The position numbers and the translations under genes are program-made. Of a stretch of 64,000 bases of DNA, positions 54-62,372 are shown piece after piece. The notes under the pieces were generated by a model. It was not told where the DNA came from. It made no database searches and was given only the letters and a program-made list of their open reading frames with translations. Each line of letters starts with the position of its first letter. The stretch's first letter is position 1. Source of the DNA: Ligilactobacillus faecis (lineage in GTDB: Bacteria; Bacillota; Bacilli; Lactobacillales; Lactobacillaceae); contig NZ_CP123639.1 in NCBI RefSeq assembly GCF_029889745.1, positions 62,001 to 126,000 on the forward strand, in the 5' to 3' direction.

Positions 54-57
54 TATT

Positions 58-7649: not shown

Positions 7650-8984
7650 TTAATAACGTTCGCGTTGTTGTTTTCTTTCTTGGCGCCGAGCGATCTTACG
7701 TTTTTGTTGGGCATCGCGTTTCAAGGCACGTTTGATCTTGTTCTTATAACCAGGTTTGCGCTTTTTCTTAGCTTTTTTGACCATCCCGATCATCTTTGGA
7801 TCGAGACTTTCTTTGCGCGTTCTCCGCTTTTGTCGCCGGTTACGGTCGTAAGAGTCAACGATCTCCCCATTTTTGAGAGCTTTAGGTACAAATTTGACCC
7901 CCATTTGCTCTAACTCTTCGATCTCTTGTTCTTCGCTTGGGACATACAATGTGATCGCGATCCCTTTCATCCCGTTACGTCCAGTCCGTCCGACACGGTG
8001 GACAAAGAATTCTAGATCTTCTGGTAAGTCATCATTGATAACATGGGAGACCCCTTCGATATCGATTCCTCTAGCTGCCAAGTCTGTTGCTACAACATAT
8101 TGATATTCTAGATTTTGGATCTCACGCATGATCCGTTTTCTTTCCCGTGGTTGAACACCACCATGGATCTTAGCCACTTTTAGCCCTTGTTGCCGTAAAT
8201 AAGTCGTCAATTCGTCAGCTCGTTCTTTTGTATTAGTAAATACTAAAGCTAAGTATGGTTCACCTAAAGTCAATAATTGATGGATCAACTGATTTTTGCT
8301 ACGTCCTTTAGTGGAAAGCAACCAGTTATCGATATCTTTACTGATCACGTGCTTGTTTTCTACGACTTCGACCACAGGAGCTTCCATGTATTTATGCAAG
8401 AATGGCTGTAATTTTTGCGGGATCGTTGCCGAAAAGACTAACATCTGCAGATCTTTTGGTAAAGCTGACGCGATCGCATCGGTCTCTTTTAAGAAACCTA
8501 GATCAAGTGTCATGTCAGCTTCATCAACGACAAGGTAATGAGCATTATGAACATCTAAGGCGTTACTTTTCATCAGATCTAAGATCCGTCCTGGCGTCCC
8601 GATCACGATCTGCGGTTGACGGTGCGCTAATTTTTCAATTTGGCGTTTTTTATCAGTGCCCCCAACATAGTTATGCACTAAGATCTCTTTTGGAGAATGT
8701 TTTGCTAGTTGCTTAGCTGCTTCATAGATCTGATATGCCAATTCGCGACTTGGAGTCGTGATCACTGCTTGCACTTCAGTTAAAGTCGGATCGATCTTTT
8801 CAAAGATCGGAAGTAAAAATGTGTGCGTCTTTCCACTCCCAGTCTGGGATTGCCCAACAACGCTCTTTCCTTTTTTGATCACAGGGATCAAACGTGCCTG
8901 AACTTCAGTCGGAGTAGTAAAGCCTAACTCAGCTAAAGCTTCATTGATGAATGGTTTAAAATTGAATTCTTTAAAATTTTTCAT
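7650..8984 (-). CDS. cshB: DEAD-box RNA helicase (CshB-like)
   Basis: A protein of 444 residues with the complete helicase core: Q motif near the start, TGSGKT (48-53), TPSRELA (78-83), VDEAD (153-157), SAT (185-187) and HRVGRTGRNG. The tail (about 385-444) is very basic and probably binds RNA. Such helicases unwind RNA duplexes in ribosome assembly, mRNA decay and cold adaptation. The CshB assignment rests on the overall length, the basic tail and the neighbouring nrnA, so the subfamily is less certain than the enzyme class. It lies 12 bp downstream of nrnA. The mobile element boundary begins 11 bp after its stop codon, so its original terminator has been lost or displaced. Confidence 0.9.
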   Translation of the reverse strand: MKNFKEFNFKPFINEALAELGFTTPTEVQARLIPVIKKGKSVVGQSQTGSGKTHTFLLPIFEKIDPTLTEVQAVITTPSRELAYQIYEAAKQLAKHSPKEILVHNYVGGTDKKRQIEKLAHRQPQIVIGTPGRILDLMKSNALDVHNAHYLVVDEADMTLDLGFLKETDAIASALPKDLQMLVFSATIPQKLQPFLHKYMEAPVVEVVENKHVISKDIDNWLLSTKGRSKNQLIHQLLTLGEPYLALVFTNTKERADELTTYLRQQGLKVAKIHGGVQPRERKRIMREIQNLEYQYVVATDLAARGIDIEGVSHVINDDLPEDLEFFVHRVGRTGRNGMKGIAITLYVPSEEQEIEELEQMGVKFVPKALKNGEIVDSYDRNRRQKRRTRKESLDPKMIGMVKKAKKKRKPGYKNKIKRALKRDAQQKRKIARRQERKQQRERY

Positions 8985-8996
8985 TACTTGTTTCCT

Positions 8997-9950
8997 TTAA
9001 TTTTCTGTTACACTCGCAGCGATCTGATCTAATTTTTCAACGTAGGCTGGTAATTGGTCTAGATCTTCTAAAACCGCTCCACTAGCAAGTGGATGTCCCC
9101 CACCAGCATATTCTTTTGCCAGTTCATTGATCACTGGTCCTTTTGATCTGATCCGCATCCGATAAGTCTCATCTTTTTGCTGAACGATCACAGTCCAACA
9201 AACAACAGAAGAGATCTTACCGACTAACGGTACGACTTGAGCTGTGCCTGCATCCTCAAGCTCAAATTTTTCCATCGTTTCATTATCTAAAACGATGTAT
9301 GCTGCATTGTGCTTTGTATATTCGATATTTTCTAAAACATAAGCTGAAAGTCGTGCTACTTCAGGTGTCACCTCATCTAAGATCCGGTTGACTTGGCTTG
9401 CATCGAAGTCATATTCCATCAACTGTGCGGCTGCGCGATGAGTACGTGGTGTGGTCGCACTATACATAAACCGCCCTGTATCGCCAACGATCCCAGCATA
9501 CAACATGCGGGCTGCCTCTGCCGTTAAAACAAGTTTTCCAGCTAAACTCGCCACTAACTCAGTGATCATTTCTGAAGTACTTGAAGCACTTGGATCGACC
9601 CAACAAATATCACCGTAAGGGTCGTCATTTGGGTGATGATCGATCTTGATCAAAGCTTTTCCATTGAGATAACGTTCATCATCGACGCGCGGTCGATTAG
9701 CAGTATCAGTTACGATCACTAAGGCGTCTTTATAAATATCATCTGTGATCTCTTGTGGAGTTGCGATCCAACTAAGACCTTTGACATTTTTCCCAACTTG
9801 ATAAACTTTTTTGGCGGGAAAAGTCGCTCTAATGATCGCTGCTAACCCACATTGGGAACCGTAAGCATCGGGATCAGGACGTTGGTGGCGGTGGATGATG
9901 ATCGTATCATATTTTTGGATCTGAGCTAAGATTTCTTCTTCAACTTTCAT
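8997..9950 (-). CDS. nrnA: DHH-family nanoRNase / pAp phosphatase NrnA
   Basis: A protein of 317 residues. Metal-binding motifs of the DHH phosphoesterases are present in order: HRHQRPDPDAYGS (about 20-32), VTDTANRPRVDD, KIDHHPNDD (the DHH signature) and the C-terminal DHHA1 motif AGGGHPLASGA. NrnA degrades 2-5-nt RNA fragments to mononucleotides and dephosphorylates pAp, completing RNA turnover. It is followed by the DEAD-box helicase gene, which makes a small RNA-metabolism unit. A promoter is visible 43-72 bp upstream. Confidence 0.92.
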   Translation of the reverse strand: MKVEEEILAQIQKYDTIIIHRHQRPDPDAYGSQCGLAAIIRATFPAKKVYQVGKNVKGLSWIATPQEITDDIYKDALVIVTDTANRPRVDDERYLNGKALIKIDHHPNDDPYGDICWVDPSASSTSEMITELVASLAGKLVLTAEAARMLYAGIVGDTGRFMYSATTPRTHRAAAQLMEYDFDASQVNRILDEVTPEVARLSAYVLENIEYTKHNAAYIVLDNETMEKFELEDAGTAQVVPLVGKISSVVCWTVIVQQKDETYRMRIRSKGPVINELAKEYAGGGHPLASGAVLEDLDQLPAYVEKLDQIAASVTEN

Positions 9951-9992
9951 TTTAGTTTTTCCTTATCTTTTAGTTTTCACATCTAACTGTAT

Positions 9993-10022
9993 AGTATAGC
10001 ATGTTTTTTTAAGTTTACTCAA
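9993..10022 (-). promoter_or_regulatory. Sigma-A type promoter of nrnA-cshB
   Basis: On the minus strand TTGAGT (10017-10022) and TATACT (9993-9998) are separated by 18 bp, just after the dinB stop codon and about 45 bp before the nrnA start. Confidence 0.6.
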
Positions 10023-10025
10023 ATT

Positions 10026-11099
10026 TCACAAAGGTAAACGGATATTTTCAAATTCAAGCGGAGCAAGACTTGTCATCGTCAAACCTAACAAGCGGACAGA
10101 GATCTCAGATAATTCTAACGTTTCAAAGATCTGTTTAGCTTCATACATTAAAAGCGTTGGCTCATTTTCAAAATGATCTTGTTTCGTCACACGACGCGTC
10201 ACTGTTTCAAACTCTGTCGTCCGTAATTTCAAAACTAGAGTCTTGCCATGTTTTTGTTTGGCATTCAATTCTTTAGCTAAACGATCAGCTAAAAGCGCCA
10301 ATTGCTCGTCAACTTGAGCTTCACTGATAAGTGGGCGTGGATATGTCCTTTCATTACCGATCGAACGCCTTTCTTTGACTTCAACTGGACGCTGATCGAT
10401 CCCGCGGACTCGTTGATAAAGGTCAAAACCGGCTTTGCCAAAGTGAGCTCTCAAATAACTTTGCGACTTACCATAAAGATCATGACCATCTTTGATCCCT
10501 AAAGCATGCATTTTTTGTGCTGTTTTTTTACCGACACCGCGAAATTTTTCGATCGGTAAAGGCAATAAAAATGCTTTTGCTTCACTTTCTCTGATCACTG
10601 TCGTACCGACTGGTTTACAAAAATCAGAAGCTAGCTTAGCTAAAAACTTATTATACGAGATCCCAGTCGAACAAGTTAAGCGTGTTTTTTCATAGATCTC
10701 TTGTTGTAAATAATGAGCTGTTAAAACTGCTGAGCCTAAATTTTTCTTATCATTTGTAACGTCTAAATAAGCTTCATCTAAGGCTAACGGTTCAACGACA
10801 TCGGCGTATTCATGAAAGATCTCATGGATCTTACGAGAAACTTCCCGATATTTTGGAAAATCGGGACTGATAAAGACCGCATCAGGACAAAGACGCAACG
10901 CCTCACTTGCATTTTGCGCTGAATGCACTCCAAAAGAACGGGCTTGATAATTAGCCGTGGCAACGACCCCATGCCCCCCAGTCTTTCTAGGATCTTTGGC
11001 GATAACAACTGGCTTATCGCGCAAGCGCGGGTCATCACGCATCTCGATCGAAGCATAGAAGCAATCCATATCAACATGGATGATCTTACGCTTTTTCAA
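10026..11099 (-). CDS. dinB: DNA polymerase IV (Y-family)
   Basis: About 357 residues from a TTG start at 11099, chosen because GAGGTGG lies 5 nt upstream; an in-frame GTG 9 nt further up falls within that ribosome binding site. Catalytic acidic residues appear in HVDMDCFYASIE near the N-terminus and in LALDEAYLDVT. The helix-hairpin-helix thumb (FRGVGKKTAQKMHALGI) and the C-terminal little-finger domain are present. The enzyme performs low-fidelity translesion synthesis. It is separated from zwf by a terminator and is probably transcribed alone. No LexA/DinR-type operator was recognised upstream. Confidence 0.95.
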   Translation of the reverse strand: MKKRKIIHVDMDCFYASIEMRDDPRLRDKPVVIAKDPRKTGGHGVVATANYQARSFGVHSAQNASEALRLCPDAVFISPDFPKYREVSRKIHEIFHEYADVVEPLALDEAYLDVTNDKKNLGSAVLTAHYLQQEIYEKTRLTCSTGISYNKFLAKLASDFCKPVGTTVIRESEAKAFLLPLPIEKFRGVGKKTAQKMHALGIKDGHDLYGKSQSYLRAHFGKAGFDLYQRVRGIDQRPVEVKERRSIGNERTYPRPLISEAQVDEQLALLADRLAKELNAKQKHGKTLVLKLRTTEFETVTRRVTKQDHFENEPTLLMYEAKQIFETLELSEISVRLLGLTMTSLAPLEFENIRLPL

Positions 11100-11124
11100 A
11101 ATTACCACCTCGCTTTAGGCAGAC

Positions 11125-11149
11125 AAAAAGCGTATGCGATGACATACGC
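11125..11149 (-). terminator. Terminator of the acc-zwf transcript
   Basis: On the minus strand GCGTATG (11143-11149) pairs with CATACGC (11130-11136), followed by a T-run. It lies 17 bp after the zwf stop codon. Confidence 0.8.
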
Positions 11150-11165
11150 CTCTTAAATAACTATA

Positions 11166-12641: not shown

Positions 12642-12704
12642 ATTGATTTTAGTTATATTTATTTTACTAATAACCCTTCTTTTTAACAAGTAAATTGTTC
12701 AAGA

Positions 12705-14350: not shown

Positions 14351-14533
14351 ATATAATCAAATTTAGTCTAAATTACATTTGAGAAAAGAATTATATATTT
14401 CCTTTCTTGCTTTTATCTACTACTCTCAATAAAAATATTTCCAGCGCCTAAGACCTAAACTGTGACCTATATATTTACCTCACATCTTAGCTTTTCTATA
14501 AAACATTAGGTCATAAGTTGCGCTTTTAGATCA
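14345..14533 (-). promoter_or_regulatory. accC-accD intergenic region with FabT-like half-site
   Basis: The minus strand reads AATTTGATTATATTTG at about 14348-14363. Its left half matches the FabT consensus ANTTTGATTATCAAATT known from streptococci, but the right half does not. AT-rich hexamers that could serve as -10 boxes lie nearby. Nothing else recognisable is present in this 183-bp gap, which is odd for an acc operon. Confidence 0.3.
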
Positions 14534-15901: not shown

Positions 15902-15921
15902 CGATTTTTCCCCTTTGTAGC

Positions 15922-17477: not shown

Positions 17478-17482
17478 CTTTC

Positions 17483-23808: not shown

Positions 23809-25059
23809 CTAGGCTAGTTTAGCTATTCCCTTATCCAGAATATTCTTAGCTGCATTCCAGTCACGAATATGATGAATACCGCAATTAGGACACGTCCATT
23901 CACGATCAGCCAAGGTTAGTTTCTCGGTGTTATTAGTTCCCATGATAAAACTACAATCATTGCAAGTTTGAGTAGTATTTTTCGGGCTGACAGTCACGAA
24001 CTGATGATTATACAGCTTAGCTTTATAAGCCAACATGCCGAGAAATGTTCGCCAGCCAACGTCAGAAATACTAAGCGCTAAAGCATGATTCTTGAGCATA
24101 TTCTTACTACGCAACTCCTCAGCTACTACTAAATCGTGGTTCTTGATTAGTGCAGTAGAGATTTGTTGGAGAAAATTATGTCTTTGGTTCATTACTTTGG
24201 CATGGAGTTTGGCAACTAACAAGCGTTGCTTTTGGTAATTTTTACTATTCTGTAAAGAGCGATGTTCTTTCTTGGCACGGCGTTGTCGTCTAGATAGAAT
24301 ACGCTGTTCTTTAGCTAATTTGCCTTTAATAGTACGATAATATCGTGGGTTAGGAACTGTGTTACCTTCATTATCGGTTAAGAAATTATCAGTATTAAGA
24401 TCAATTCCAATATGTCCGTGATTAGCCTTGGACACTTTAACAAAAGGTTCATCTGAAGCTAGTTGCATTGATATGAAAAAGCGATCTGCTGGATCTTTAG
24501 TCAAAGTTACTGTGCCAATTCTAGTTTCACACGCTCTTTTCAATAGGCGCGCTTGAGAACCCGCAATCCGTAACCGACCAATTTTAGGCACTTTAACATG
24601 GTGCTTATCTAAAAAACATACTGTACCGTTAGTTAGTAACGCAGTCTTTTGCCCTGGGTATTGACAATTAGTTTGATAACGCCAGCGATAACTCTTTCGA
24701 TGAAATTTAGGAACACCAGCAGTGTGAACCTTCCGAAAGGCATTCCAAGCTTTTCGGTAGTTCTGAATGGCATTAGCTTTCGCCAAACTGTCAATTCGTT
24801 TATCTTCTAAAAATTGATAGTGATTAGACATTTGTTTAGCGTTTTGACGCATAGTTAGTTGCTTAATACGCTCCTGGACTGTGTCAATCGGTAACTTAAC
24901 TCTGCGAAGTTGCATCAGTTCCTTACCGATCGCAACCATTTCGTTATAGATAAAGCGACTAGCGTCACTGTTAATTTTAATCAACTGCTTTTGTTGGTCA
25001 CTAGGGTAGCAACGCATTTTCAGGCCATAATGATATTGCATTTTCGCCATTGACTTCAT
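23809..25059 (-). CDS. tnpB: RNA-guided endonuclease TnpB
   Basis: I start at the ATG at 25059 because AAGGAGGTGG precedes it, giving 416 residues. The RuvC-like acidic residues lie in GIDLNTDNF, VVAEELRSKNM and IRDWNAAKNI. The zinc ribbon is C-x2-C...C-x2-C (TCNDCSF...WTCPNCG). All catalytic positions are present, so the protein should be active. It is divergent from tnpA with only 74 bp between start codons. Confidence 0.93.
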   Translation of the reverse strand: MKSMAKMQYHYGLKMRCYPSDQQKQLIKINSDASRFIYNEMVAIGKELMQLRRVKLPIDTVQERIKQLTMRQNAKQMSNHYQFLEDKRIDSLAKANAIQNYRKAWNAFRKVHTAGVPKFHRKSYRWRYQTNCQYPGQKTALLTNGTVCFLDKHHVKVPKIGRLRIAGSQARLLKRACETRIGTVTLTKDPADRFFISMQLASDEPFVKVSKANHGHIGIDLNTDNFLTDNEGNTVPNPRYYRTIKGKLAKEQRILSRRQRRAKKEHRSLQNSKNYQKQRLLVAKLHAKVMNQRHNFLQQISTALIKNHDLVVAEELRSKNMLKNHALALSISDVGWRTFLGMLAYKAKLYNHQFVTVSPKNTTQTCNDCSFIMGTNNTEKLTLADREWTCPNCGIHHIRDWNAAKNILDKGIAKLA

Positions 25060-25133
25060 TTGATTCCACCTCCTTAATTGATATAATGATATTGTATCAT
25101 ATGTCAATGATAATAAATATAGGGGTAAATAAA

Positions 25134-25714: not shown

Positions 25715-26622
25715 CTAGGCAGCCTGATTCCGGTATTCTTCTGGAGTCAGGCTGTTTAGTTTTATTTGGTAACGTTGGGTATTGTAGAACTTGATATAGT
25801 TTTCGATCATTTCTACAAGTTCTCCATATGTTTCACATTTTAGCCAATAATAACATTCTGTCTTGAAATGACTCCAAAAACTTTCCATTGGTGCGTTATC
25901 GATACATTTCCCCACTCGAGACATACTTCTTGTAACACCATGCCTTGAGGTCAACCGAAGATATTCCTTTGAAGTATATTGAAATCCACGATCACTGTGA
26001 AGAAGTAGATTAGCTTCATTTAAATGCGTGAATGCTTTTTCTAAAGTCTTCATGACAAGCCGATTATCATTTCTTTTACTAATTTCAAAACTTATGATAG
26101 ATCCATCGTATAGATCTTTGATCGCACTTAAATAAGCTTTTTGTCCTAAGCCATATTCTAAATAAGTGACATCAGTCACCCACTTTTGATTAGGTCTAGT
26201 AGCGGAAAAATCACGACCTAAAGTATTTTCTTCGTAGTTTAAATGTTCTGAACGAGTACAACCTCGGCGTTTGCGACGAATTACTGAATATAAACCAAGG
26301 ACTCTCATTAAGCGACGAATACGTTTGAAGTTATATTGTTTTTGATACTTTCGATTGATAAGAAGAGTCATTCTTCTAGAACCGTAAATTCCATTTAAAG
26401 CATGAAATTCTTTTTTTATGATCTCACTTAACCATTCATTTTCCAAAGTACATTGTGATTTTGGAGCAGTTAAATAACGATAATACCCTGAGCGCGATAC
26501 ATTTAAGATCGCACAAAGGATCCAGAGTTCAATTTGTGGAAACTCTTTAAGAACTTCCTGAATAGCTTTAAAACGCAGATTTTTAGGTATAAAGCTTATC
26601 TCCTCCTTTCGAGTTCGTCCAA
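25715..26622 (-). CDS. IS3-family transposase orfB (catalytic part, made by frameshift)
   Basis: The frame stays open upstream of any ATG and overlaps the end of orfA. It contains an HTH_21-like region (EIIKKEFHALNGIYGSRRMT) and a DDE integrase core: WVTDVTYLE (D), LLHSDRGFQYTS (D) and APMESFWSHFKTE (E). No start codon with a ribosome binding site is evident at its beginning, so it is probably produced only as an OrfAB fusion by -1 slippage at A7 (26623-26629, read on the minus strand). Confidence 0.88.
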
Positions 26623-28735: not shown

Positions 28736-30252
28736 CAGAATGTAGACTAAGTCATCAGAGTATGTGCTCTGGTGACTTTTTTTGTATAATTAAAGAAAAC
28801 GGTTACGGAGGTGCTCATTATGCTTCACAAAAGTGATCCCAATCTCAAACGCTGTGAATATGCTCGTACTTCTCTAGATGATTTGGTCCCAAAAGATCAT
28901 TTACTCCGTAAAATTGATCAAATTATTGATTTCTCTTTTATTTATGATCTTGTCGAAGATTCCTATTGTAAAAATAATGGTCGTCCTAGTCTTGACCCTG
29001 TACTACTCATAAAGATTCCTTTGATCCAAAATCTATTTGGTATTCGTTCTATGCGTCAAACGATCAAAGAAATTCAAGTTAATGTCGCTTATCGATGGTT
29101 TCTAGGACTAGGTTTAAATGATCCTGTTCCTCATTTCTCTACCTACGGTAAAAATTATAAAAGAAGATTTGCTGAAAGCCATGTAATAGAAGCTATTTTT
29201 GCTCATATTTTGAAACTCTGTTTAGAAAATGATCTTATCGACACAACTGATATCTTTATTGATGGAACTCATTTGAAAGCTGCTGCTAACAGCCGTAAAT
29301 ATACTACTGAAGTTATTGAAACTAAGTCAAAATTTATGAGTGAAGATCTCGAAAAAGAAATAAATGTAGATAGAGCTAAACATCAAAAGAAACCCTTAAA
29401 AGAAGAAAAACCTAAAAAAAAACTAGACAAGTAAAAATATCTAAAACTGATCCTGATAGTGGATGGTTTCATAAGGGTGAACACAAACAGGTTTTTGCCT
29501 ATAACGTTCAAGCTGCCTGTGATAAAAATGGGTGGCTCTTAGCTTATGTGGTCGGTGCGGGAAATATCCATGATACGCAACTTTTTCCTGAAATATTTGA
29601 AAAAGTACGGAAGTACGACCCACAATATATTATCGCTGATTCTGGCTATAAAACACCCACGATCGCACACTTTTTACTATCTCAAGGCATAATTCCCATT
29701 CTTCCTTATAAACGCCCAAGGGGCAAAGTTGGTACGCTTAGACCCAAAGATTTTGTTTATGATGAATATTATGATTGTTATTTATGTCCTGGCGATCAAA
29801 TCTTAATGTACTCCACAACTAATCGAAGTGGTTATCGTGAATATAAAAGTGATCCTACAATCTGTGAAAAATGTCCTTTACTGCACAAATGTACACAAAG
29901 TAAAAATCATCAAAGAGTTATCGCTCGTCATGTTTGGCAAGATAGTATGGAAAAATGTGAGGATATCAGGCATCAAACTGGCTCAAAATTAAAGTATGAA
30001 GCGCGAAAGGAGACGATCGAAAGAAATTTTGGTTCGGCAAAAGAATATCACAACTTGAGATACGCCCGAGAAGTAGGAATTGATAAAATTCTAGCTAAAG
30101 TTGGGTTGATATTTGCGTGCCTAAATCTAAAAAAATTGGTAAAAATACTGGGGAAAAACCCTGTTATATTCGTATATTTCAAAGTATATAGTTATAAAAA
30201 TACATAAAAAAATAAACTCTATCCGATTTGAATAGAGTTTGTCTACGTTCTG
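28736..30252. mobile_element. IS1182-family element
   Basis: About 1517 bp with 12-bp inverted ends CAGAATGTAGAC / CAGAACGTAGAC. Just inside each end is an inward-facing terminator: the CATCAGAG/CTCTGGTG hairpin plus T7 at about 28749-28780, and the AAACTCTAT/ATAGAGTTT hairpin on the other side at about 30210-30240. The element lies between two direct copies of the lacS terminator hairpin. Its transposase reading frame is interrupted. Confidence 0.85.
28820..30207 (+). pseudogene. IS1182-family transposase, frame-shifted at an A9 tract
   Basis: GGAGGTG precedes the ATG at 28820. The first part (to a stop at 29434) has the N-terminal DUF772-like region (VPKDHLLRKIDQIID...FSTYGKNYKRRF) and the first catalytic Asp in IFIDGTHLKAA. 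The second part continues in the -1 frame to 30207 with VFAYNVQAACD, IIADSGYKT, a four-Cys cluster and ERNFGSAKEYHNLRYAR. The shift occurs at nine A (29414-29422). It may be an inactivating mutation, a homopolymer sequencing error, or a slippage site; normal members of this family have one frame. Confidence 0.75.
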
Positions 30253-41062: not shown

Positions 41063-43012
41063 TTAAAGGTCTGCTCTTTTTGAAACATGCTGATCTTGGA
41101 TCCGTTTGAACATATGCTCAAGATCAGTCGGACTAAAGTGAACTAGTGTCGGGCGCCCATGCGGACAATTGAACGGGTTTTCACAGGTCTTCAATTGTTC
41201 CAACAAGGCTTTAGCTTGTAGTTCATCTAAGTGATGGTTAGCCTTGATCGAACGTTTACAGCTCATCATGATCGCTGTTTTTTCGCGTACTTGAGCAACA
41301 GTCAAATGTTGATCGGCTAAAAACCACTCGATCATCTCTTTTACGATCTCTTCTTCTTGTCCTTTTTTGAACCACTGTGGGTGTTTACGAACGATAAACG
41401 TATTTTGCCCAAAATCTTCCAACCAGACCCCTAATTTAGCTAATTTTTCACGGTTTTCTGCGATCTTTAACGCCTCACTTGTCGGGTAAGTCAAAACGAG
41501 CGGCACTAATAAAGTTTGTTGGACTTGTTGAACGTTGGCGATCTTTTGCCGGTAATACTCATATTTACACCGTTCTTGTGCAGCATGTTGATCAACGATA
41601 TATAAGCCATCTTCGGCTTGAGCAAGCAAATAAGTCCCGTGAAGTTGCCCGATATATGTCAGCTCAGGGAATTTAGGTCGTTCTTTTACAGGCTTTTCTG
41701 TCAGCTCGACTGATTCAAGCGGCTTTTTTTCTTTATTCAATGTAACTTGATACTTTTCATCCCATTTTTGTAATTGTGGCGAATTCAGTTGTTGCTTATC
41801 TTTAATGATCACTGGCTCAACTGTCACCTCTACCTTTGGTGAGACGTTTTTTTTGAGAGCTTCACCTAATAAGACTTGCGTTACTTCAGCTGTACTATGC
41901 CTTTTTTGTGGTCTAGTTTGATAGTTACTTTGCGTTTCAGCCAAAGTCAGATCTAACTGGGTCACTTTTTCTTTTGTTTTTGGCCTATTTGACGTCATAT
42001 TTTGCAAGGCATTGGGGATCAAGTTTTCTTGACTTAACCGCTCCTTTAGTGCCTGCGTCACGAGCTCACAGAGCTGCTCTTCTTTGCTGATCCGAACTTC
42101 TTGTTTAGTCGGATGCACGTTGACATCAACTAACAGCGGATCAAGTTTGATATCGATAACTGCGAGCGGATAACGCCCGACCATTAATTTAGAACCATAG
42201 CCTTTCAAGACCGCTTTTAACAGCTGGTTATTTTTGATATATCTTCCATTGACTAATAAGCTGATATAATTTCGCGAAGCCCGCGTCAATTTAGGCAATG
42301 AGATATAGCCCTTTACTGAAAAATCGCTATCTTGCCCTGAAAATTCTAACATTTGTCGCGCGTTTTGGACCCCATAGATCGCGCTGATCGTCTGTTGTAG
42401 TTTACCATTACCAGCAGTCTGTAAAAGGCGGCGCTCGTTATTGTAAAGCGAAAAAGCGATCTGCTCGTGACTTAGAGCTAAACGATCGACGATGTCACTG
42501 ATCGCTGCTAATTCCGTTTGAAGTGAACTCAAATATTTCAAACGTGCTGGCGTATTATAAAAAAGATCGGTCACAGTGATCTTTGTACCCACTCGCTTAG
42601 CTGCAGGGCGTTTAGTTTGCGTCTTGCCCCCACGAACGTGGTAAAATGTTCCTTCAGTTTCAGCAATATTTGCTGTTTCAACTTTAACATCAGCGATCGA
42701 AGCAATACTTGGCAGGGCCTCGCCACGAAAACCTAACGTCTTGACTTGAAAAAGATCGTTTCGATCTGTGATCTTACTTGTAGCATGGCGGAAAAAGGCC
42801 AATGCAACATCTTCTTGTAAGATGCCTTCGCCGTTATCGATCACAGTGATCTCTTTTACTCCTGCATCTTTGACGTAAATATCGATCTGTGTACTTTTAG
42901 CATCGATCGCATTTTCAACTAATTCTTTAACGACCGAAGCTGGTCGCTCAACGACCTCGCCGGCTGCGATCTGATCGGCTAAGATCGTGGATAATTCATG
43001 TATCTTTGCCAT
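41063..43012 (-). CDS. mutL: DNA mismatch repair protein MutL
   Basis: A protein of 649 residues. The GHKL ATPase motifs are VVKELVENAIDA, VIDNGEGI and GFRGEALPSIASI. A variable linker (about 330-450) leads to the C-terminal dimerisation/endonuclease region, with SCKRSIKANHHL and NCPHGRPT late in the chain. It couples MutS recognition to strand incision. It lies 18 bp after mutS. Confidence 0.97.
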   Translation of the reverse strand: MAKIHELSTILADQIAAGEVVERPASVVKELVENAIDAKSTQIDIYVKDAGVKEITVIDNGEGILQEDVALAFFRHATSKITDRNDLFQVKTLGFRGEALPSIASIADVKVETANIAETEGTFYHVRGGKTQTKRPAAKRVGTKITVTDLFYNTPARLKYLSSLQTELAAISDIVDRLALSHEQIAFSLYNNERRLLQTAGNGKLQQTISAIYGVQNARQMLEFSGQDSDFSVKGYISLPKLTRASRNYISLLVNGRYIKNNQLLKAVLKGYGSKLMVGRYPLAVIDIKLDPLLVDVNVHPTKQEVRISKEEQLCELVTQALKERLSQENLIPNALQNMTSNRPKTKEKVTQLDLTLAETQSNYQTRPQKRHSTAEVTQVLLGEALKKNVSPKVEVTVEPVIIKDKQQLNSPQLQKWDEKYQVTLNKEKKPLESVELTEKPVKERPKFPELTYIGQLHGTYLLAQAEDGLYIVDQHAAQERCKYEYYRQKIANVQQVQQTLLVPLVLTYPTSEALKIAENREKLAKLGVWLEDFGQNTFIVRKHPQWFKKGQEEEIVKEMIEWFLADQHLTVAQVREKTAIMMSCKRSIKANHHLDELQAKALLEQLKTCENPFNCPHGRPTLVHFSPTDLEHMFKRIQDQHVSKRADL

Positions 43013-43030: not shown

Positions 43031-45637
43031 TTACTCATTTTTTAATTTTTCTTGCCAAGCAAAAACTTTGTTCATCACTTCCATTGGCGTTAATGCCATC
43101 AAATTAGTTTGATGCAACTCTGCTAGCACTTCTGTTTCATTGGAATTTGATGCTGACACAAGTTCCGGTTCAAAGAGCGAAAGTTGTGTATCATTTGCTG
43201 AAATTTCAGCTTCCTTGATCTCTTCTGCTTGCGTTTCAAATTGCAGGCCCTCATTTGCTTGCCCCTCTAAAGTCGTTAAGATCGTAGCGGCTCGGGTCAA
43301 AAGCGCTGATGGCATCCCGGCAAGTTTAGCAACATGGACTCCATAAGAACGATCGGCCGGGCCTTTTTGCATCTTGTGTAAAAAGACGAGCTCACCATCT
43401 TTTTCAACTGCCCCTACGTGGATATTAGTCAACTTCGGTAGCTCTTCTTCTAGCGCCGTCAATTCATGATAGTGGGTCGAAAATAGCGTTTTTGCGTGTA
43501 CATGATCATGCAAATATTCAATGATCGCTTGGGCAAGCGCCATCCCGTCATAAGTTGCTGTTCCCCGTCCGATCTCATCAAACAAGATCAAACTTTTAGC
43601 AGTCGCGTGTTGCAAAGCTTCATTAGCCTCTTTCATCTCGACCATGAATGTCGATTCACCTGAGATCAAATCATCAGCTGCCCCGATCCGGGTGAAGATC
43701 TGGTCAAAGATCGGCATTACTGCACTTTTAGCTGGCACAAAACAGCCCATTTGTGCCATGACGACACTTAAAGCTAGTTGCCGCATATAAGTACTTTTAC
43801 CAGACATATTTGGCCCTGTGATCAGTAAAATATCTGTTTCGTCTGCTAATGAAACATCATTGGGAACATAGCTCTGCTTACCTAAAACTTTTTCCACAAC
43901 TGGATGCCAGCCATCTTTGATCTGCAACGTTTGACTTGTAGTTGCTAATTTTGGGCGTACAAAATGATTTTCTTCACTGACATTAGCAAAACTTTGCAAG
44001 ACATCTAACTCTGCCAACTTAGACGCTAATTTTTGAAGTCTTTCGATCTGATCTTTGATCTGTTCACGAATATCTTTGAATAATTGGTATTCAAGATCGT
44101 ATGCTTTCGTCTCAGCCCCTAAGATCAACTCTTCTTTTTCTTTTAATTCCGGGGTAACAAAACGTTCGGCATTGGCCAGTGTTTGTTTTCTTTGATAACG
44201 CCCTTCTTCTAATTTACTTACATTAGCTTTTGAGACCTCGATATAGTAGCCAAAAACACGATTGAACCCGATCTTTAACGTCGCGATCCCTGTTTTTTTT
44301 CGCTCACTAGCTTCAAGTTCAGCAAGCCATTTTTTCCCATTACGCATCGCATCATGATATTGATCTAGCTCAGTGTTGTACCCTGCTTGGATCAAATTGC
44401 CTTCTGTCACTGAGATCGGCGGTTCAGGAACGATCGCCCGCTCGATCAGATCAGCGACATCTTCAACAGGATCAAGCTCACTTAAAAGTTCAGCATAGAG
44501 TTTAGGCTCAAGTTGTTCTAATAGATAACGGATCTGTGGCACTTGTTCTAACGAAGTTTTGAGCTGGATCAGATCGCGTCCGTTAACGCTCCCAAAAGCT
44601 ACTCGTCCCGCTAAACGTTCCAGATCATAAACTTTCGTCAATTGTTCAGTCAAACTTGCTCGTTCAAAATAATTTTCCAATAGATTTTCAACGATCGCCT
44701 GACGTTTGATGATCACTTCCTTATCTAAAAGAGGGCGCATGATCCACTGTTTGAGCAAACGCCCGCCCATCGCCGTCTTAGTCTTATCTAAAAGCCACAA
44801 TAAAGTTCCTTGTCGGCGATCAGTCCGGAGATTTTGCAATAATTCTAAGTTTCGTTGTGCAGCATGATCGATCTTCAAATAGTGTGATGGTTCATAATGT
44901 ACTGCTTTTTGTAAATGTGATAAAGAGCGTTTTTGCGTCTCTAAGAGATAGGCCAACAGTAGCTCTAACACGTTTTTTTCAGCAGCCACGCTGATCGTTT
45001 GGGTCACATAAGAAACTTCAGCAGTGAGGACTTTTGTGTCCTGAACTGAAGTCAGAAGTTTTAATTTATCCAAAATTTGCTTAGTCTGTTGTGAAACAGT
45101 CTCATCGATCACGACTTCCCGCGTTTTCAAACTCAACAATTCATTTACGAGTGCATCACGTGTCGTCAAAGTCGCAACTTTGATCTCTCCGGTCGAAAGA
45201 TCAACATACGCTAGACTGTATTTTTCTTGCTCTTCATGTAACGCCGTTAAATAATTATTTTCGCTTGCTTCCCCATTCTTTTGGTCCATGATCGTTCCAG
45301 GCGTGATCAGTTGCACGACTTCTCTTTTGACCATTCCTTTGGCTGCTTTAGGATCTTCGACTTGTTCACAGATCGCAACTTTATAGCCTTTTTCCACTAG
45401 AATATCGATATAATTTTGAGCAGCATGGTGCGGGATCCCACACATCGGGATCGGATCGACCGCATTTTTATTTCGAGCAGTCAAAGTCAACTCTAGCAGT
45501 TGCGAACCTTTGACCGCATCCTCATAAAACATCTCATAGAAGTCACCTAGCCGATAAAATAAAAAAGCATCTGGATATTGCTTTTTTACGGCAAGATATT
45601 GTTCCATCATCGGTGTATTTTTCGTTTTTTGCGGCAT
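43031..45637 (-). CDS. mutS: DNA mismatch repair protein MutS
   Basis: A protein of 868 residues with full MutS layout. The mismatch-contacting Phe lies in the N-terminal [16 protein letters not shown]. Walker A is [17 protein letters not shown], Walker B is [16 protein letters not shown], and the signature loop and a beta-clamp-type QLSLFEPE tail are present. It is the first gene of mutS-mutL-ruvA-ruvB-queA-tgt-yajC. Confidence 0.98.
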
Positions 45638-53718: not shown

Positions 53719-53723
53719 CTAAC

Positions 53724-54443: not shown

Positions 54444-54453
54444 TTTTATTTCC

Positions 54454-56076: not shown

Positions 56077-56119
56077 TATTTTACCTCACATCATAATTAT
56101 TTATGCTTTAATTTTACCA

Positions 56120-56150
56120 AAAAAGCCTAGGGTCTTCTATCTCCCTAGAC
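56120..56150 (-). terminator. Terminator of the amino-acid permease gene
   Basis: On the minus strand CTAGGG pairs with CCCTAG across a 10-nt loop, followed by GC and six T. Confidence 0.8.
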
Positions 56151-56159
56151 TTGATCATT

Positions 56160-57497: not shown

Positions 57498-57593
57498 GCC
57501 AGTATACACCCTCTCTAAATTTAAATGTTCCTTTTTTTAACAAAATAAAGAATTATCTCTTATTTTATCGAATTTCACCTAAATTCGCAATTA

Positions 57594-57627
57594 CAAAAAA
57601 AATACAGGTATACGCGATACCTGTATT
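57594..57627 (-). terminator. Terminator of leuS
   Basis: On the minus strand ATACAGGTA pairs with TACCTGTAT across a 7-nt loop and is followed by eight T. Confidence 0.88.
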
Positions 57628-57634
57628 TTAGTTC

Positions 57635-60049
57635 TTAATTTGCTACGATATTGATCAATTTCCCTGGAACAGCGATCACGCGCCGAAGCGTCTTTCCTGC
57701 AAGTTCTTCTTTGACCTTTTCATCGTTTAACGCTATTTCTTCAAGTTGTTCTTTTGTAGCATCGCGAGAAACATTTAATCTCTGACGGATCTTTCCGTTG
57801 ATCTGAACTACGATCTCTACTGTATCTTCAACAAGTTTCGTTTCGTCATATGTTGGCCAACTAGCATACGCTAAACTTTCTTCATGTCCCAGTTGGTTCC
57901 AAAGTTCTTCCGCCATATGTGGCGTGATCGGAGCCAGTAATTTGACTAGTCCTTCAACATATTCAAGCGGTAGTGCTTCAGCTTTGTAAAATTCATTTAC
58001 TAAGACCATCAATTGTGAGATCGCTGTATTAAAGTGGAGCTTTTCGTAATCTTCAGTTACCTTCTTGACAGTTTGATTATAAACAAGATCAAGATCACCG
58101 TCATTGATAGTTGTGATCCGATCACGTAAATGTCCCTCTTCGTCAATGATCAGATTCCAAACGCGATTTACAAATTTGTTGGCCCCATTTAGTCCGTCTT
58201 CACTCCAAGCGATCGAAGCATCAAGTGGCCCCATAAACATTTCATAAAGACGTAAAGTATCTGCGCCATATTCTTCGACGATATCGTCTGGATTAACAAC
58301 ATTCCCTTTAGATTTAGACATCTTTTCATGGTTATTTCCAAGGATCATTCCTTGGTTGACCAATTTTTGGAATGGTTCTTTCGTTGGCACGACCCCAAGA
58401 TCATAAAGGAATTTATGCCAGAAGCGAGCATACAATAGGTGTAACACAGCATGTTCTGCCCCACCAACGTATAGATCGACTGGTAACCACTCTTTTAATT
58501 TTTCTGGATCAGCGATGACATCTTTATTATGTGGATCAATGTAACGCAAGAAGTACCATGAACTTCCTGCCCATTGTGGCATAGTGTTAGTTTCTCGCCG
58601 ACCTTTACGGCCATTTTCATCAACGACATTGACCCAGTCTTCTAGGTTAGCCAAAGGACTTTCTCCAGTTCCAGAAGGTTTGATGTCATTTGATTTTGGC
58701 AAAAGAAGTGGTAATTCATCTTCTGGAACAAGTGTTGTTTCGCCATCTTCCCAATGAATGACTGGGATCGGTTCGCCCCAATAACGTTGACGTGAGAAAG
58801 TCCAATCTCGGAGACGATAATTGACTTTCTTATCGCCAACATGATGCTCTTTTAACCACTCGATCATCAATTCGATAGCTTTTTCTTTATCTTCTAATCC
58901 ATCTAAAAAGCCTGAATTGATATATTTTCCTTCACCAGTATACGCTTCTTTTGTGATATCGCCCCCAGCGATCACTTGGATCATTGGGATATCATATTTT
59001 TTAGCAAATTCCCAGTCACGAGGATCATGAGCTGCTGAGACCATGACTGCACCAGTACCATAAGAAGCTAAAACATAATCTGCGATCCAGATCGGAACTT
59101 TAGCGCCATTAACTGGATCGATCGCATAACTTCCTGTAAAGACACCTGTTTTATCTTTAGCCAGATCTGTGCGTTCAAGATCTGATTTATGAGAAACTTC
59201 TTCTAAGTATTTTTCAACAGCTTCTTTTTGGTCAGCTGTTGTTAAAGTTTCAACTAATTCATGTTCTGGTGCGATCGTGATCGCTGATGTTCCAAAGAGT
59301 GTATCTGGACGCGTGGTAAAGACTTCAATTTCAGCCTCTTTATCAGCTACTTTAAAATCGATCGTTGCCCCAACAGAGCGTCCGATCCAATTTTTTTGTT
59401 GTTCTTTGATCGCTTCAGGCCAGTCTAGATCATCAAGATCATCGATCAGACGATCTGCATAAGCTGTGATCTTTAAGACCCATTGGCGCATTGGCTTGCG
59501 AATAACTGGGAATCCACCGCGTTCTGTCTTTCCATCGATAACTTCTTCGTTGGCAACAACTGTGCCAAGATCTGGACTCCAGTTGACTGGGATCTCAGCT
59601 TCATAAGCTAGACCACGTTTGTAAAGTTGTTCAAAGATCCATTGAGTCCATTTGTAATATGCAGGATCGGTCGTATTTACTTCACGATCCCAGTCGTATG
59701 AAAGCCCTAAAGATTTGATCTGACGTCTAAAGTTATTGATATTTTTCTTTGTAAATTCACGCGGGGAATTTCCTGTCTTTAGCGCATATTGCTCAGCAGG
59801 TAGCCCAAAAGCATCCCAGCCCATTGGATGTAAAACATTATAACCTTGCATCCGCTTCATCCGTGAGATAATGTCTGTTGCAGTATAGCCTTCCGGATGC
59901 CCAACGTGTAAGCCTTGGCCAGATGGATATGGAAACATATCTAAAGCATAGTAATTCTTTTTAGCTTTATCTTCTGTTGTTTTGAAAGTTTTATGCTCAT
60001 CCCAGTAGCGTTGCCACTTAGATTCAATTTTTTTGTGATCGTAAGCCAT
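57635..60049 (-). CDS. leuS: Leucyl-tRNA synthetase
   Basis: A protein of 804 residues, the bacterial type. The HIGH-like motif lies in [16 protein letters not shown] and KMSKS in [12 protein letters not shown]. The CP1 editing domain sits between them ([22 protein letters not shown]), and the anticodon and C-terminal domains are intact. It charges leucine to tRNA-Leu, one isoacceptor of which is encoded at 50275-50359. Expression is controlled by a T-box leader. Confidence 0.98.
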
Positions 60050-60079
60050 ATTGAAAAAAGATCCTTTCTTGAAAATAAA

Positions 60080-60345
60080 AAAACCTATACGAGAAATAAA
60101 TTCTCATATAGGACGAAAAATTCCGCGGTACCACCCATTATTCCAACAATCATGTTGACTCTTATCTTCGTAACGTGAAGTCCCGTCTCTGCCTACTTGC
60201 ATTTCACCAGAAAACTCAAAGGTGAGTTCAAAAAGAAAAGTTACATGCTCACAGCACCGCATGCTCTCTTAAAAACTTTAGCTTTCCTACTATTCCTTCT
60301 CAGCGTTCTAATATTTAACTCTTATACTAGCAAAACAGACTCACT
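60080..60345 (-). promoter_or_regulatory. T-box riboswitch of leuS
   Basis: On the minus strand the core T-box GGGTGGTACCGCGGAA (60121-60136) is followed by a terminator hairpin CCTATA...TATAGG with T7 (60078-60112). Upstream lie stem-I-like elements (AGAGAGCA, GGTGCTGTGAGC, CTGGTGAAATG). A CTC at 60224-60226 in GAACTCACC is a candidate leucine specifier, but I could not verify its place in the loop. Uncharged tRNA-Leu would stabilise the antiterminator and switch leuS on. Confidence 0.93.
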
Positions 60346-60359
60346 AATTCAAGTAGATT

Positions 60360-62372
60360 TTAGCGTAATTTTAACTTTTGGCCAATATAGATCAGATCCG
60401 AAGACAAACTATTCAAAGCTTTGATCCGATCAACTGTCGTAGCATTTTTTGAGGCGATCTTCCATAACGAATCACCAGCTTTGACTGTATATTCAGCTGA
60501 ATTACTCGAAGTTTGAGTAACCTTATTTTCATTAGAAGCAGCTACTTTTAAATTTTGACCGACATAGATCATATCTGAACTTAGATTATTCAACCGCTTT
60601 AATGTAGCTAAAGTCATCTTGTGGGCATTAGCGATCGACCATAAAGTATCACCAGCTTTAACTACGTACCCACTATTAGAAGTTACTTGAGCATTGCTTG
60701 TAGTCGGAGTAGTTTTATTGGGAGTCACTTTACTTTCACCAATCGTTTTTAACGTTTGACCAGGTAAAATGAGATCACTATTCAGACCATTCAAAGTTTT
60801 TAGTGCTTGTAAGCTCATATTATGCTCACGTGCGATCCGATATAATGAATCACCAGCTTTAACTGTATAAGTTCCTGTCGCTTGTGGTCGTGTTTCTTGC
60901 TCAGAAGGTCGTGGCTGACTTTGAGTCTGATTTTGGTTTTGGTTTGATGTTTGCGGTTGACCACTGACTTTTAAGCTTTGACCGACATAGATCATGTTAC
61001 TACTCAAGTTATTCAAACTCTTCAATGCTTGCACGCTCATCGAGTGGGCTAATGCGATCCGATATAAGTTATCGCCTGCCTTGACTGTATAAGTTCCTGT
61101 CGCTTGTGGTCGTGTTTCTTGAGCAGAAGGTTGTGGTTGACTTTGAGTCTGATTTTGGTTTTGGTTTGATGTTTGCGGCTGACCACTGACTTTTAAGCTT
61201 TGACCGACATAGATCATGTTACTACTCAAGTTATTCAAACTCTTCAATGCTTGCACGCTCATCGAGTGGGCTAATGCGATCCGATATAAGTTATCGCCTG
61301 CCTTGACTGTATAAGTCCCTGTCGCTTGTGGTCGTGTTTCTTGCTCAGAAGGTCGTGGTTGACTTTGAGTCTGATTTTGGTTTTGGTTTGATGTTTGCGG
61401 TTGACCACTGACTTTTAAGCTTTGACCGACATAGATCATGTTACTACTCAAGTTATTCAAACTCTTCAATGCTTGCACACTCATCGAGTGTGCTAATGCG
61501 ATCCGATATAGGTTGTCGCCTGCCTTGACTGTATAAGTCCCTGTCGTTTGGGGTCGTGTTTCTTGCTCAGAAGGTTGTGGTTGACTTTGAACATTATTTT
61601 CTGTACTTTGACTTTGCCCACCTATATCATAAGCTGTTAAATTATAAGTCTCGATCACACGGATCAGTTTTTCAGCGTAATCAGGTGCAGTTGCATATGT
61701 ACCATAAACTCCGTTACGAAGATTATGAGCTGCGATCTGATAATTTGCTGCATTAGCACGAGTCGAATTAGGGAACCGAGAAGTTATTACATTAGCGTAA
61801 CCATTTAATGATTCGGCATAACTTGAATAACGTTGAAATTTATCATAAACAGTTTGGTACGAACCATTATAATATTCTTGGGTCGGCAACTCGATATATG
61901 CACCAGCACCTGACCATTTAACTCCAAACAAATTATAAGCAGAAGTTGAAAGATAACTTCCTCCCCAACCACTTTCAAGTGCTGCTTGTGCGATCATCAA
62001 AGAAGCATATAGACCTCTTTGTTGAGCTACTTGTTGTGCAGAACCAGCAATGTTTTGTAAGAATGTTTGAACGTTACTTGCATAAGTTGTAGGAACATTA
62101 ACAGTTTGTGGTGTAGTAACTGTCGAGACCTCCGAAGACGCAGTTGAAGTAGTGTTATTTGTGTTATTTGTTGTAGTGTTATTCAAACTTGATATATTAT
62201 TTTGATCAACTTGAACAGTATCAGCTTGAGCTTTTTCTTTATTTAATGAAAAACCTGCCGCCCCCATCAAAAATGTTGTTCCTAAATAAGTTGTCACTCT
62301 TTTTACAGAACGAAGGTTTTGTGATAATAGCTGTTGCTTTTGACTATCGATCCGCTGCTTTCTGCTTTTCAA
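60360..62372 (-). CDS. Secreted GH73 peptidoglycan hydrolase with six LysM domains
   Basis: A protein of 670 residues from a TTG start behind AAGGAGGAG. A long, basic N-terminus and hydrophobic core form the signal peptide (cleavage near KAQAD, about 51). A Ser/Thr/Asn-rich linker leads to the glucosaminidase domain (about 100-250) with the catalytic Glu in AQAALESGWGGSYL. Six LysM domains follow: three nearly identical (TVKAGDNLYRIALAHSMSVQ), then three divergent ones ending at the C-terminus. Linkers are Gln/Asn/Ser/Pro-rich. It should cut N-acetylglucosaminyl bonds and act in cell separation while bound to the wall through LysM. Confidence 0.95.
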   Translation of the reverse strand: MKSRKQRIDSQKQQLLSQNLRSVKRVTTYLGTTFLMGAAGFSLNKEKAQADTVQVDQNNISSLNNTTTNNTNNTTSTASSEVSTVTTPQTVNVPTTYASNVQTFLQNIAGSAQQVAQQRGLYASLMIAQAALESGWGGSYLSTSAYNLFGVKWSGAGAYIELPTQEYYNGSYQTVYDKFQRYSSYAESLNGYANVITSRFPNSTRANAANYQIAAHNLRNGVYGTYATAPDYAEKLIRVIETYNLTAYDIGGQSQSTENNVQSQPQPSEQETRPQTTGTYTVKAGDNLYRIALAHSMSVQALKSLNNLSSNMIYVGQSLKVSGQPQTSNQNQNQTQSQPRPSEQETRPQATGTYTVKAGDNLYRIALAHSMSVQALKSLNNLSSNMIYVGQSLKVSGQPQTSNQNQNQTQSQPQPSAQETRPQATGTYTVKAGDNLYRIALAHSMSVQALKSLNNLSSNMIYVGQSLKVSGQPQTSNQNQNQTQSQPRPSEQETRPQATGTYTVKAGDSLYRIAREHNMSLQALKTLNGLNSDLILPGQTLKTIGESKVTPNKTTPTTSNAQVTSNSGYVVKAGDTLWSIANAHKMTLATLKRLNNLSSDMIYVGQNLKVAASNENKVTQTSSNSAEYTVKAGDSLWKIASKNATTVDRIKALNSLSSDLIYIGQKLKLR
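60871..61536. repeat. Three tandem 222-bp repeats encoding LysM plus linker
   Basis: The motif GTTCCTGTCGCTTGTGG or a one-base variant recurs at 60871, 61093, 61315 and, slightly diverged, 61537, a period of exactly 222 bp (74 codons). Copies are nearly identical at DNA level, including synonymous positions, so they were duplicated or homogenised recently. Confidence 0.9.

What the first reader, a model, noticed from the sequence alone, without database searches (positions are those of the whole stretch)
7650..62372. Extreme GATC density in chromosomal genes through G-ending codons before Ile-ATC
Seen: by-eye counts give about 22 GATC per kb in 7641-8640 and in 9001-10000 and about 14 per kb in lacZ, against roughly 3 to 4 per kb expected from composition. 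In galR about 14 of 23 isoleucines are preceded by G and all 14 of those use ATC (ACG-ATC, GCG-ATC, GGG-ATC, GTG-ATC, AAG-ATC, TTG-ATC), although the same amino acids elsewhere usually have A- or T-ending codons. The palindrome GCGATCGC recurs, for example at 8470 and around 20705, 20822, 20877, 23391 and 28577. The IS605 element has about 3 per kb, the ISL3, IS3 and plasmid-like DNA about 5-8. It resembles the HIP1 phenomenon of cyanobacteria, which I do not know to be described for lactobacilli.
Basis: partly seen in the sequence, partly recalled or inferred. Interest (0 to 1): 0.7.

Follow-up and report, generated by a model that had tools for sequence, protein, structure and literature searches.

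The report
GATC-directed T:G mismatch correction signature
In this lactic-acid bacterium nearly every silent position where DNA could read GATT or AATC reads GATC instead, the same scar that E. coli's very-short-patch repair leaves at its own site, yet neither the known repair enzyme nor its partner methylase was found in the genome.

Summary
GATC is the most over-represented of 256 tetramers in 424 kb of this genome, which ranks first of 217 sampled Lactobacillales. It is neither a codon effect nor HIP1. It is a strand-symmetric, frame-independent, transition-only bias, GATT->GATC and AATC->GATC, also present in intergenic DNA. At synonymous sites after GAT, C is 96% against a median of 26%. 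Between two relatives, C/T changes at these sites are about 20-fold rarer than elsewhere, while C/A changes that also destroy GATC are not reduced. That fits sequence-specific correction of T:G to C:G, not selection for GATC. E. coli MG1655 shows an effect of the same size at its Dcm/Vsr site CCWGG and none at GATC. Lactobacillales with a GATC-type cytosine methylase plus Vsr are GATC-enriched (4 of 4); those with the methylase and no detected Vsr are not (15 of 15). This genome has neither, so its enzyme is unidentified: lost, or of another family. Best reading: very-short-patch-like repair aimed at GATC, long kept in one clade; gene unknown.

The parts
7650..62372 (.). Stretch of chromosomal genes dense in GATC; GATT and AATC are nearly absent at synonymous positions
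   Evidence: GAT|Y third positions in the whole window C 583, T 29, against 27% C elsewhere (8880 sites)
43031..45637 (-). mutS ORF (868 aa), mismatch-repair factor; used as marker for relatives
   Evidence: Matches in 26 of 26 genus genomes. That VSP repair is helped by MutS/MutL is recalled from E. coli, not tested
41063..43012 (-). mutL ORF (649 aa)
   Evidence: translation (name recalled from sequence); orthologs used
8470..8477 (.). GCGATCGC, first of 11 in the window; largely explained by GATC plus flanks
23809..25107 (-). IS605/TnpB-like gene, the mobile gene with least conversion (1 of 4 GAT|Y is C)

Best explanation
The chromosome carries the scar of a sequence-specific T:G mismatch correction acting on GATC. 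When one strand reads GATC and the other has T opposite the G (a GATT/GATC heteroduplex, from replication error or from deamination), the T is replaced by C whichever strand is old. This turns GATT and its complement AATC into GATC and prevents GATC from decaying. It is relaxed at the second base (GGTT) and weakly at the first (CATT, TATT). It works like E. coli very-short-patch (VSP) repair. SHOWN: the direction, strand symmetry, independence of reading frame, transition-only character, activity since the split of two relatives, and the match in size to E. coli CCWGG. INFERRED: that an enzyme acting on T:G mismatches does it. UNKNOWN: the gene. No Vsr and no C5-cytosine methylase was found in this genome, so the agent is either of another or very divergent family, or was lost very recently.
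For: (1) Synonymous C/(C+T) after GAT is 0.962 (n=3844), median of contexts 0.258; the mirror G/(A+G) before ATC is 0.960 (n=3553). (2) Intergenic DNA (35 kb): GATC is the most over- (O/E 1.72) and GATT/AATC the most under-represented (0.54) of 256 tetramers. (3) Leu after GAT is CTR in 239 of 306 CTR+TTR cases, against 5-23% after 15 of the 16 other codons tested (GGT 47%). (4) Transition-only: before Ile, A/G is .08/.69 against .41/.41 in neutral relatives while the purine total is similar (.77 and .82); escapes from GATT/AATC that do not make GATC show little specific excess. (5) G022 against G014, 53 ortholog pairs: C/T discordance 10/539 at GAT|Y, 828/2072 elsewhere; mirror 8/474 and 722/1833; but C/A at Ile ATC is 8/537 after G and 1/151 otherwise (Fisher 1.7e-4). 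Neutral pairs show no such contrast: G003-G011 23/50 and 271/719, G003-G018 5/37 and 97/472. (6) Where G022 and G014 both have C after GAT and this genome has GAT|Y, this genome has C at 231 of 231 (mirror 176 of 178), while elsewhere 181 of 329 such C sites are T here. (7) E. coli control: xC[Y]|WGG 115 C, 1 T (OR 65); CCW[R]G 273 G, 3 A (OR 75); GAT|Y not enriched. (8) Seven genomes of the order with Vsr over cut-off rank 2, 4, 9, 19, 29, 52 and 165 of 217 (p=0.0008, phylogeny not corrected). (9) GATC-type methylase with Vsr: 4 of 4 enriched; without detected Vsr: 15 of 15 not.
Against: No Vsr (best 12 bits), no C5 methylase and no relative of the GATC-type methylase in this genome. G015 and G017, which carry Vsr with such a methylase, have weaker bias (odds ratio 15 and 14) than this genome (93), and only 2.6-fold suppression of C/T changes (20/164 against 348/1085), so their Vsr is probably not the cause of the clade-wide trait. 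Of the nine other genomes in the order with ratio above 3, six have no Vsr hit over cut-off (G168, G229, G119, G045, G031, G025); in one 20-kb stretch each, G168 shows the bias (6.3 and 3.8) but G119 hardly (1.2 and 2.6). G->Y changes before ATC are also about 4.5 times rarer than before other A-starting codons (10/287 against 24/151); neutral relatives too prefer purines before Ile, which may explain this but was not fitted. Lys/Glu/Gln G-ending codons before TC show a weak excess (OR 1.48, control 1.18). G052 and G224 carry Vsr with ratios 0.46 and 1.10; their target sites are unknown.
Confidence: 0.8

Rival explanations
1. Same process by an ordinary Vsr that belonged to a GATC restriction-modification (or methylase-Vsr) module, carried by the ancestors and by many strains, but lost recently from the sequenced representatives (or on a replicon missing from the assemblies).
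For: Modules of GATC-type methylase, Vsr and a Sau3AI-related nuclease exist in G015 and G017 of the same genus and in G189 and G084 of other families. A Vsr 72% identical to that of G015 is on two Lactiplantibacillus plantarum plasmid records.
Against: Three genomes with near-complete conversion (G000, G014, G022) all lack Vsr and a related methylase, with no remnant reported although stops are read through. Changes at GATC between G014 and G022 are almost absent, so loss would have to be very recent in each. No Ligilactobacillus plasmid is among the 30 records listed (of 191 with a match).
Confidence: 0.35
2. Selection for GATC sites as such (HIP1-like function, binding protein, methyl mark).
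For: GATC conserved over deep divergence.
Against: Frame NGA|TC is not enriched (94 against 118 expected); Asp GAT is not favoured before C (.83, against .82 and .81 before A and G); GATC is lost by C->A at a rate not below that elsewhere (8/537 against 1/151); GGTC and YATC, which are not GATC, rise too.
Confidence: 0.05
3. Translational codon-pair preference NNG-ATC.
For: Most sites lie in that frame (3688 observed, 1123 expected).
Against: Intergenic DNA, the Leu test and strand symmetry; amino-acid-changing frames shift as well (GA|TC odds ratio 3.24, against 0.53 in neutral relatives).
Confidence: 0.03
4. A cytosine modification at GATC (for example N4-methylation) that shields C from deamination, with no T:G correction.
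For: Would also suppress only C->T (inference; no call tests it).
Against: C is 97-99% at GAT|Y in G014 and G022. With a C->T rate of about .01-.02 per site over the G014-G022 distance, stationarity needs T->C several times above the rate elsewhere (inference). E. coli reaches the same ratio with a known T:G enzyme.
Confidence: 0.08
5. Avoidance of GATT/AATC, for example by a nuclease cutting that sequence.
For: GATT/AATC is the most depleted tetramer in intergenic DNA.
Against: Little specific use of other escapes: Asn AAC before C OR 1.37 against 1.98 for the AATT control; Gly before TT OR 1.00; Asp GAC before T OR 2.00 equals the Asn control. Lys/Glu/Gln G-ending before TC (1.48, control 1.18) is a weak exception. 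GATC avoiders in the same genus use several routes (Asp GAC before C OR 2.77; Ile ATA 80% of ATA+ATC after G).
Confidence: 0.04

Closest known systems
Very-short-patch repair of E. coli (Dcm/Vsr at CCWGG)
   Same: Transition-only T->C/A->G bias at one short site, both strands, odds ratio 65-75 against 93 in the mutS region here and about 70 from the 424-kb fractions; relaxed near-cognate sites here (relaxed Vsr sites in E. coli are recalled).
   Different: Site is GATC; no Vsr and no C5 methylase found in this genome.
Sau3AI-type GATC restriction-modification modules with a vsr gene
   Same: Vsr beside a C5 methylase and a Sau3AI-related nuclease in G189, G084, G015, G017; carriers are GATC-enriched.
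   Different: Methylase and Vsr absent from this genome; carriers have weaker bias. Of the three nucleases scanned only that of G189 is over the NCBIfam Sau3AI cut-off (549 bits, cut-off 300; G015 116, G017 195 and half-length).
HIP1 (GCGATCGC) of cyanobacteria
   Same: Contains GATC; the 8-mer is frequent here too (242, reversed control 12); a methylation/mismatch-repair origin has been proposed (PMC4390886, abstract and section 3.4 part 1 read).
   Different: Little or no 8-mer excess beyond GATC here; GATC itself is generally under-represented in Group A and B cyanobacteria (PMC4390886 section 2.5.1).
Over-represented R-M sites (CCGG in Helicobacter, PMC4687349)
   Same: A palindromic restriction site above expectation, left unexplained by its authors (section on over-representation read).
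   Different: Peak at Kr about 1.4-1.5 there (a different statistic); here zero-order 4.06 and near-complete conversion; no GATC methylase found in this genome.

Membership tests
VSP repair (Vsr system) | T:G to C:G bias at one short recognition site, both strands | tested here: met
   Bias; E. coli control. The mismatch itself is inferred
VSP repair (Vsr system) | Vsr endonuclease gene (PF03852) | tested here: not met
   none over cut-off in G000, best 12 bits at E 0.365
VSP repair (Vsr system) | C5-cytosine methylase of the same site | tested here: not met
   no PF00145 in G000 at E<=0.001; no relative of the GATC-type methylase
VSP repair (Vsr system) | T:G-specific nicking activity at the site | not testable with these tools
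   Needs biochemistry
HIP1 | 8-mer GCGATCGC over-represented beyond its core | tested here: not met
   52 observed, 43 expected; CGATCG 469 and 464
HIP1 | Orphan GATC adenine methylase | tested here: not met
   PF02086 absent from G000; other adenine-methylase families not searched genome-wide
Sau3AI-type R-M + Vsr module | methylase, Sau3AI-like nuclease and Vsr side by side | tested here: not met
   Methylase and Vsr absent from G000; the nuclease family PF02976 itself was not searched genome-wide
Restriction-site selection or avoidance | All synonymous routes to or from the site used | tested here: not met
   (weak exceptions named in the Against line)
MIG-type T:G glycosylase (HhH-GPD) | HhH-GPD paralog shared by G000, G014, G022, or Nth with changed catalytic Lys | tested here: not met
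   G000 two hits, G014 and G022 one each; Nth of all three keeps GVGRKTA (motif meaning recalled)

The most novel reading that the evidence does not exclude
A long-lived, chromosomal T:G mismatch-correction system aimed at GATC, carried out by an enzyme family other than Vsr and without C5-cytosine methylation, has rewritten whole genomes of one lactobacillus clade and even shifted amino-acid usage.
Probability: 0.4. Interest if true: 0.85.

Novelty: new variant of a known kind. Interest (0 to 1): 0.7.

Why it matters
Genome composition here records a repair enzyme's target and history: gain in one clade, retention in three species, loss and decay in a sister (G021). If the enzyme is not Vsr, it is a new mismatch-repair family, found by its footprint alone. 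The same test (C/T odds at a site, both strands, against a transversion control) can be run on any genome to read off which T:G repair specificity acts there. It also offers a candidate explanation for over-represented restriction sites that others left unexplained.

Tried and rejected
Rejected: codon-pair bias, HIP1, selection for GATC, avoidance of GATT, and an HhH-GPD/MIG glycosylase as the shared agent (see rivals and membership). Dam methylation as the cause: PF02086 is absent, and E. coli, which has Dam (recalled), shows no GATC bias. The Vsr modules of G015/G017 as cause of the clade trait: weaker effect there.

Led nowhere: IMG/VR scan for the GATC-type methylase, 2 pattern matches and no relative. 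Local profiles of Vsr and Sau3AI against six-frame ORFs of held stretches of G000, G022 and G014: no hit at E 5, but that is only about 18% of G000 and less of the others. Methylase-motif scan of the G000 sample: two ORFs with a [DNS]PP[YFW] motif, which from their N-terminal letters look like RNA methylases (recalled). Comparing G022 ORFs with G014, G021 and G000: no obvious candidate; coverage too small. The 80 loci around mutS (29 labelled by organism in my script, the rest mostly MAGs): the highest ratio is 4.8, on 7 sites; the highest with more than 50 sites is 2.4.

Limits: genes are ORFs of 300 nt or more chosen greedily, not annotation. 'Neutral', 'avoider' and 'high' groups were defined after seeing the ratios (20 relatives plus own, of 26 genus genomes; G001, G002, G009, G013, G241 not in that table, G013 measured). 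G015 was dropped from the tree. The 217 genomes are a draw from the order with no other member of this genus, so rank 1 does not cover G022 or G014. In one search I gave 80 of 136 wanted genomes, hand-chosen by methylase score and GATC ratio. 'GATC-type' means 59% identity or more over nearly the full length, which does not prove specificity.
Full report
WHAT IS THERE. Over 424 kb of this genome (window plus eighteen 20-kb stretches; the 3-kb second contig dropped) GATC occurs 5704 times and is the most over-represented of the 256 tetramers, 4.06 times zero-order and 1.64 times Markov expectation. Synonymous-codon shuffling leaves 2274 of the 5075 coding occurrences expected. The excess sits in frame NNG|ATC (3688 against 1123) and less in GAT|C (1293 against 1033), and is absent from NGA|TC (94 against 118). 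Ile after a G-ending codon is ATC in 93% of 3982 cases, 49% after C or T, 22% after A.

WHY IT IS A DNA-LEVEL PROCESS. The frame pattern is what a GATT->GATC / AATC->GATC bias predicts, because these changes are silent in NNG|ATC, partly silent in GAT|C (Leu TTR to CTR) and never silent in NGA|TC. Three tests agree. Intergenic DNA (35 kb): GATC highest (O/E 1.72) and GATT/AATC lowest (0.54) of all tetramers. Leu after the codon GAT is CTR in 239 of 306 CTR+TTR cases (78%), against 5-23% after 15 of the 16 other codons tested, with GGT 47%. The two strands mirror each other: C/(C+T) after GAT 0.962, G/(A+G) before ATC 0.960. Even non-silent frames shift: odds ratio GA|TC 3.24 against 0.53 in neutral relatives, GAT|C without Leu 1.73 against 0.70.

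WHY IT IS A T:G CORRECTION AND NOT SELECTION. Only transitions are clearly involved. Purines before Ile total .77 here and .82 in neutral relatives, but A/G is .08/.69 here and .41/.41 there; ATA after G is .04 and .03; Asp GAT is not favoured before C. Ways out of GATT or AATC that do not make GATC show little specific excess (the weak exception is Lys/Glu/Gln G-ending before TC, 1.48 against 1.18 in the control), whereas GATC avoiders in the same genus use several ways (Asp GAC before C, odds ratio 2.77; Ile ATA). Two relatives, G022 and G014 (53 ortholog pairs, 17,333 codons), differ in C/T at 828 of 2072 C-containing sites elsewhere but at 10 of 539 after GAT, and in A/G at 722 of 1833 elsewhere but 8 of 474 before ATC. 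Neutral pairs show no such contrast (G003-G011 23/50 against 271/719; G003-G018 5/37 against 97/472). Loss of GATC by C->A is not reduced (8 of 537 after G, 1 of 151 otherwise; Fisher 1.7e-4 for the C/A and C/T contrast). G->Y before ATC is lower than before other A-starting codons (10/287 against 24/151), which I ascribe, without fitting it, to the purine preference before Ile also seen in neutral genomes. Near-cognate sites rise too: GGT|Y 0.79 and YAT|Y 0.54, against AAT|Y 0.32, as expected of an enzyme with relaxed recognition.

POSITIVE CONTROL. E. coli K-12 MG1655 (200 kb) has vsr and dcm. At its site CCWGG the same statistic gives 115 C and 1 T (odds ratio 65), and 273 G and 3 A on the mirror (75). 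At GATC E. coli shows 311 C and 505 T, no enrichment. The effect in this genome (odds ratio 93 in the mutS region; about 70 from the fractions) is of the same size as that of a known VSP system. That VSP repair may alter oligonucleotide abundance in E. coli is in print (Bhagwat and McClelland 1992; Merkl et al. 1992, seen only as references cited in PMC4687349).

HISTORY. In 21 genomes of the genus the odds ratio runs from below 0.1 to 180. High values form one clade on a MutS/MutL/RuvB tree (8 rows, support 91, G015 not placed): {this genome, G021, G022, G014} and {G008, G007, G017, G016}. Where G022 and G014 share C after GAT, and this genome has GAT|Y, it has C at 231 of 231 (mirror 176 of 178), while elsewhere 181 of 329 are T. 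G021 has T at 32 of 151 (mirror A at 32 of 116; elsewhere T at 182 of 297), so its lineage seems to have lost the activity and to be decaying. In a draw of 217 Lactobacillales, with no other member of this genus in it, this genome ranks first (ratio 11.6; median of the other 216 is 0.74; nine exceed 3).

LINK TO VSR. Vsr (PF03852) is over cut-off in 7 of 217 genomes of the order, at ranks 2, 4, 9, 19, 29, 52, 165 for the GATC ratio (Mann-Whitney p 0.0008, phylogeny not corrected), and in 2 of 26 of the genus, G015 and G017. Six of the nine other genomes above ratio 3 have no Vsr over cut-off, so a high ratio without Vsr is not unique to this clade; G168 shows the bias in a sampled stretch, G119 hardly. 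In G189, G084, G015 and G017 the vsr gene lies beside a C5 methylase (71-73% identical between the genus and the other two) and a Sau3AI-related nuclease. The G189 nuclease matches Sau3AI (4pxg) at E 1.5e-222 and is over the NCBIfam cut-off; those of G015 and G017 match the family below the cut-off and the one of G017 is half-length, so for them GATC specificity rests on the methylase. These four are GATC-enriched (3.15 and 2.06 whole-genome; 15 and 14 in the mutS region). Fifteen genomes with a similar methylase and no detected Vsr are not: 14 have ratios 0.25-1.03, median 0.46 (p 0.011 for lower than the rest), and G013 of the same genus has C at 0 of 57 GAT|Y sites in the mutS region. This fits the idea that Vsr, not the methylase, drives GATC up. 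Against a simple story: this genome, G014 and G022 have no Vsr and no such methylase (this genome no PF00145 at all), and G015/G017 have a weaker bias and only 2.6-fold suppression of changes. So the clade's main agent is probably not that module, unless a Vsr was lost very recently in each.

TAXON. Weak plasmid matches to Ligilactobacillus and the nearest named mutS, Liquorilactobacillus at 69%, suggest Ligilactobacillus; this is inference.

LITERATURE. Searches listed no title or abstract start on GATC-directed VSP repair or on this excess in lactobacilli; that covers only the held open-access library. Read: PMC4390886 outline and sections 2.5.1 and 3.4 (part 1); PMC4687349 passages and its section on over-representation; PMC12907096 passages only.

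VERDICT. Real, strong, and best read as VSP-like T:G correction at GATC, with the enzyme unidentified.

Noticed in passing
L192, L194, L182, L189 (G012, G023, G006, G010), L265 and L263 (G013): Other species of the same genus nearly lack GATC (2-4% C at GAT|Y; 0 of 57 and 0 of 36 in two stretches of G013, which carries a GATC-type methylase without detected Vsr). In the four-genome avoider group pooled (G013 not included) other escape routes are used as well, so avoidance and conversion coexist in one genus.
   Followed up: partly
L181, L264 (G021): A natural loss lineage: GATC decays to GATT/AATC in G021 although its sisters keep it; useful for finding the gene by comparison.
   Followed up: partly
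window 1-7394: Plasmid- or phage-like genes (DNA/RNA non-specific endonuclease, PriCT_1 primase, HTH protein) with low GATC but already partly converted (17 of 25 GAT|Y).
   Followed up: partly
window 23809-25107, 25715-26446, 28811-29434, 62668-63906: IS605 TnpB-like gene, an rve integrase (IS3-like), a DUF772 transposase and an ISL3 transposase; the IS605 gene looks the most recent by lack of conversion (1 of 4).
   Followed up: no
L077 (Companilactobacillus sp. RD055328) 3923-6780: A GATC-type methylase and Sau3AI-related nuclease near mutS with no vsr in the locus; GATC ratio 0.51.
   Followed up: partly
L020, L021, L023 (G123, G131, G061): A second Vsr group about 34-41% identical to the Sau3AI-linked one; two of its carriers rank 2 and 4 of 217 for GATC, although no methylase close to the GATC type was found in them (best E 6.7e-7).
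   Followed up: no
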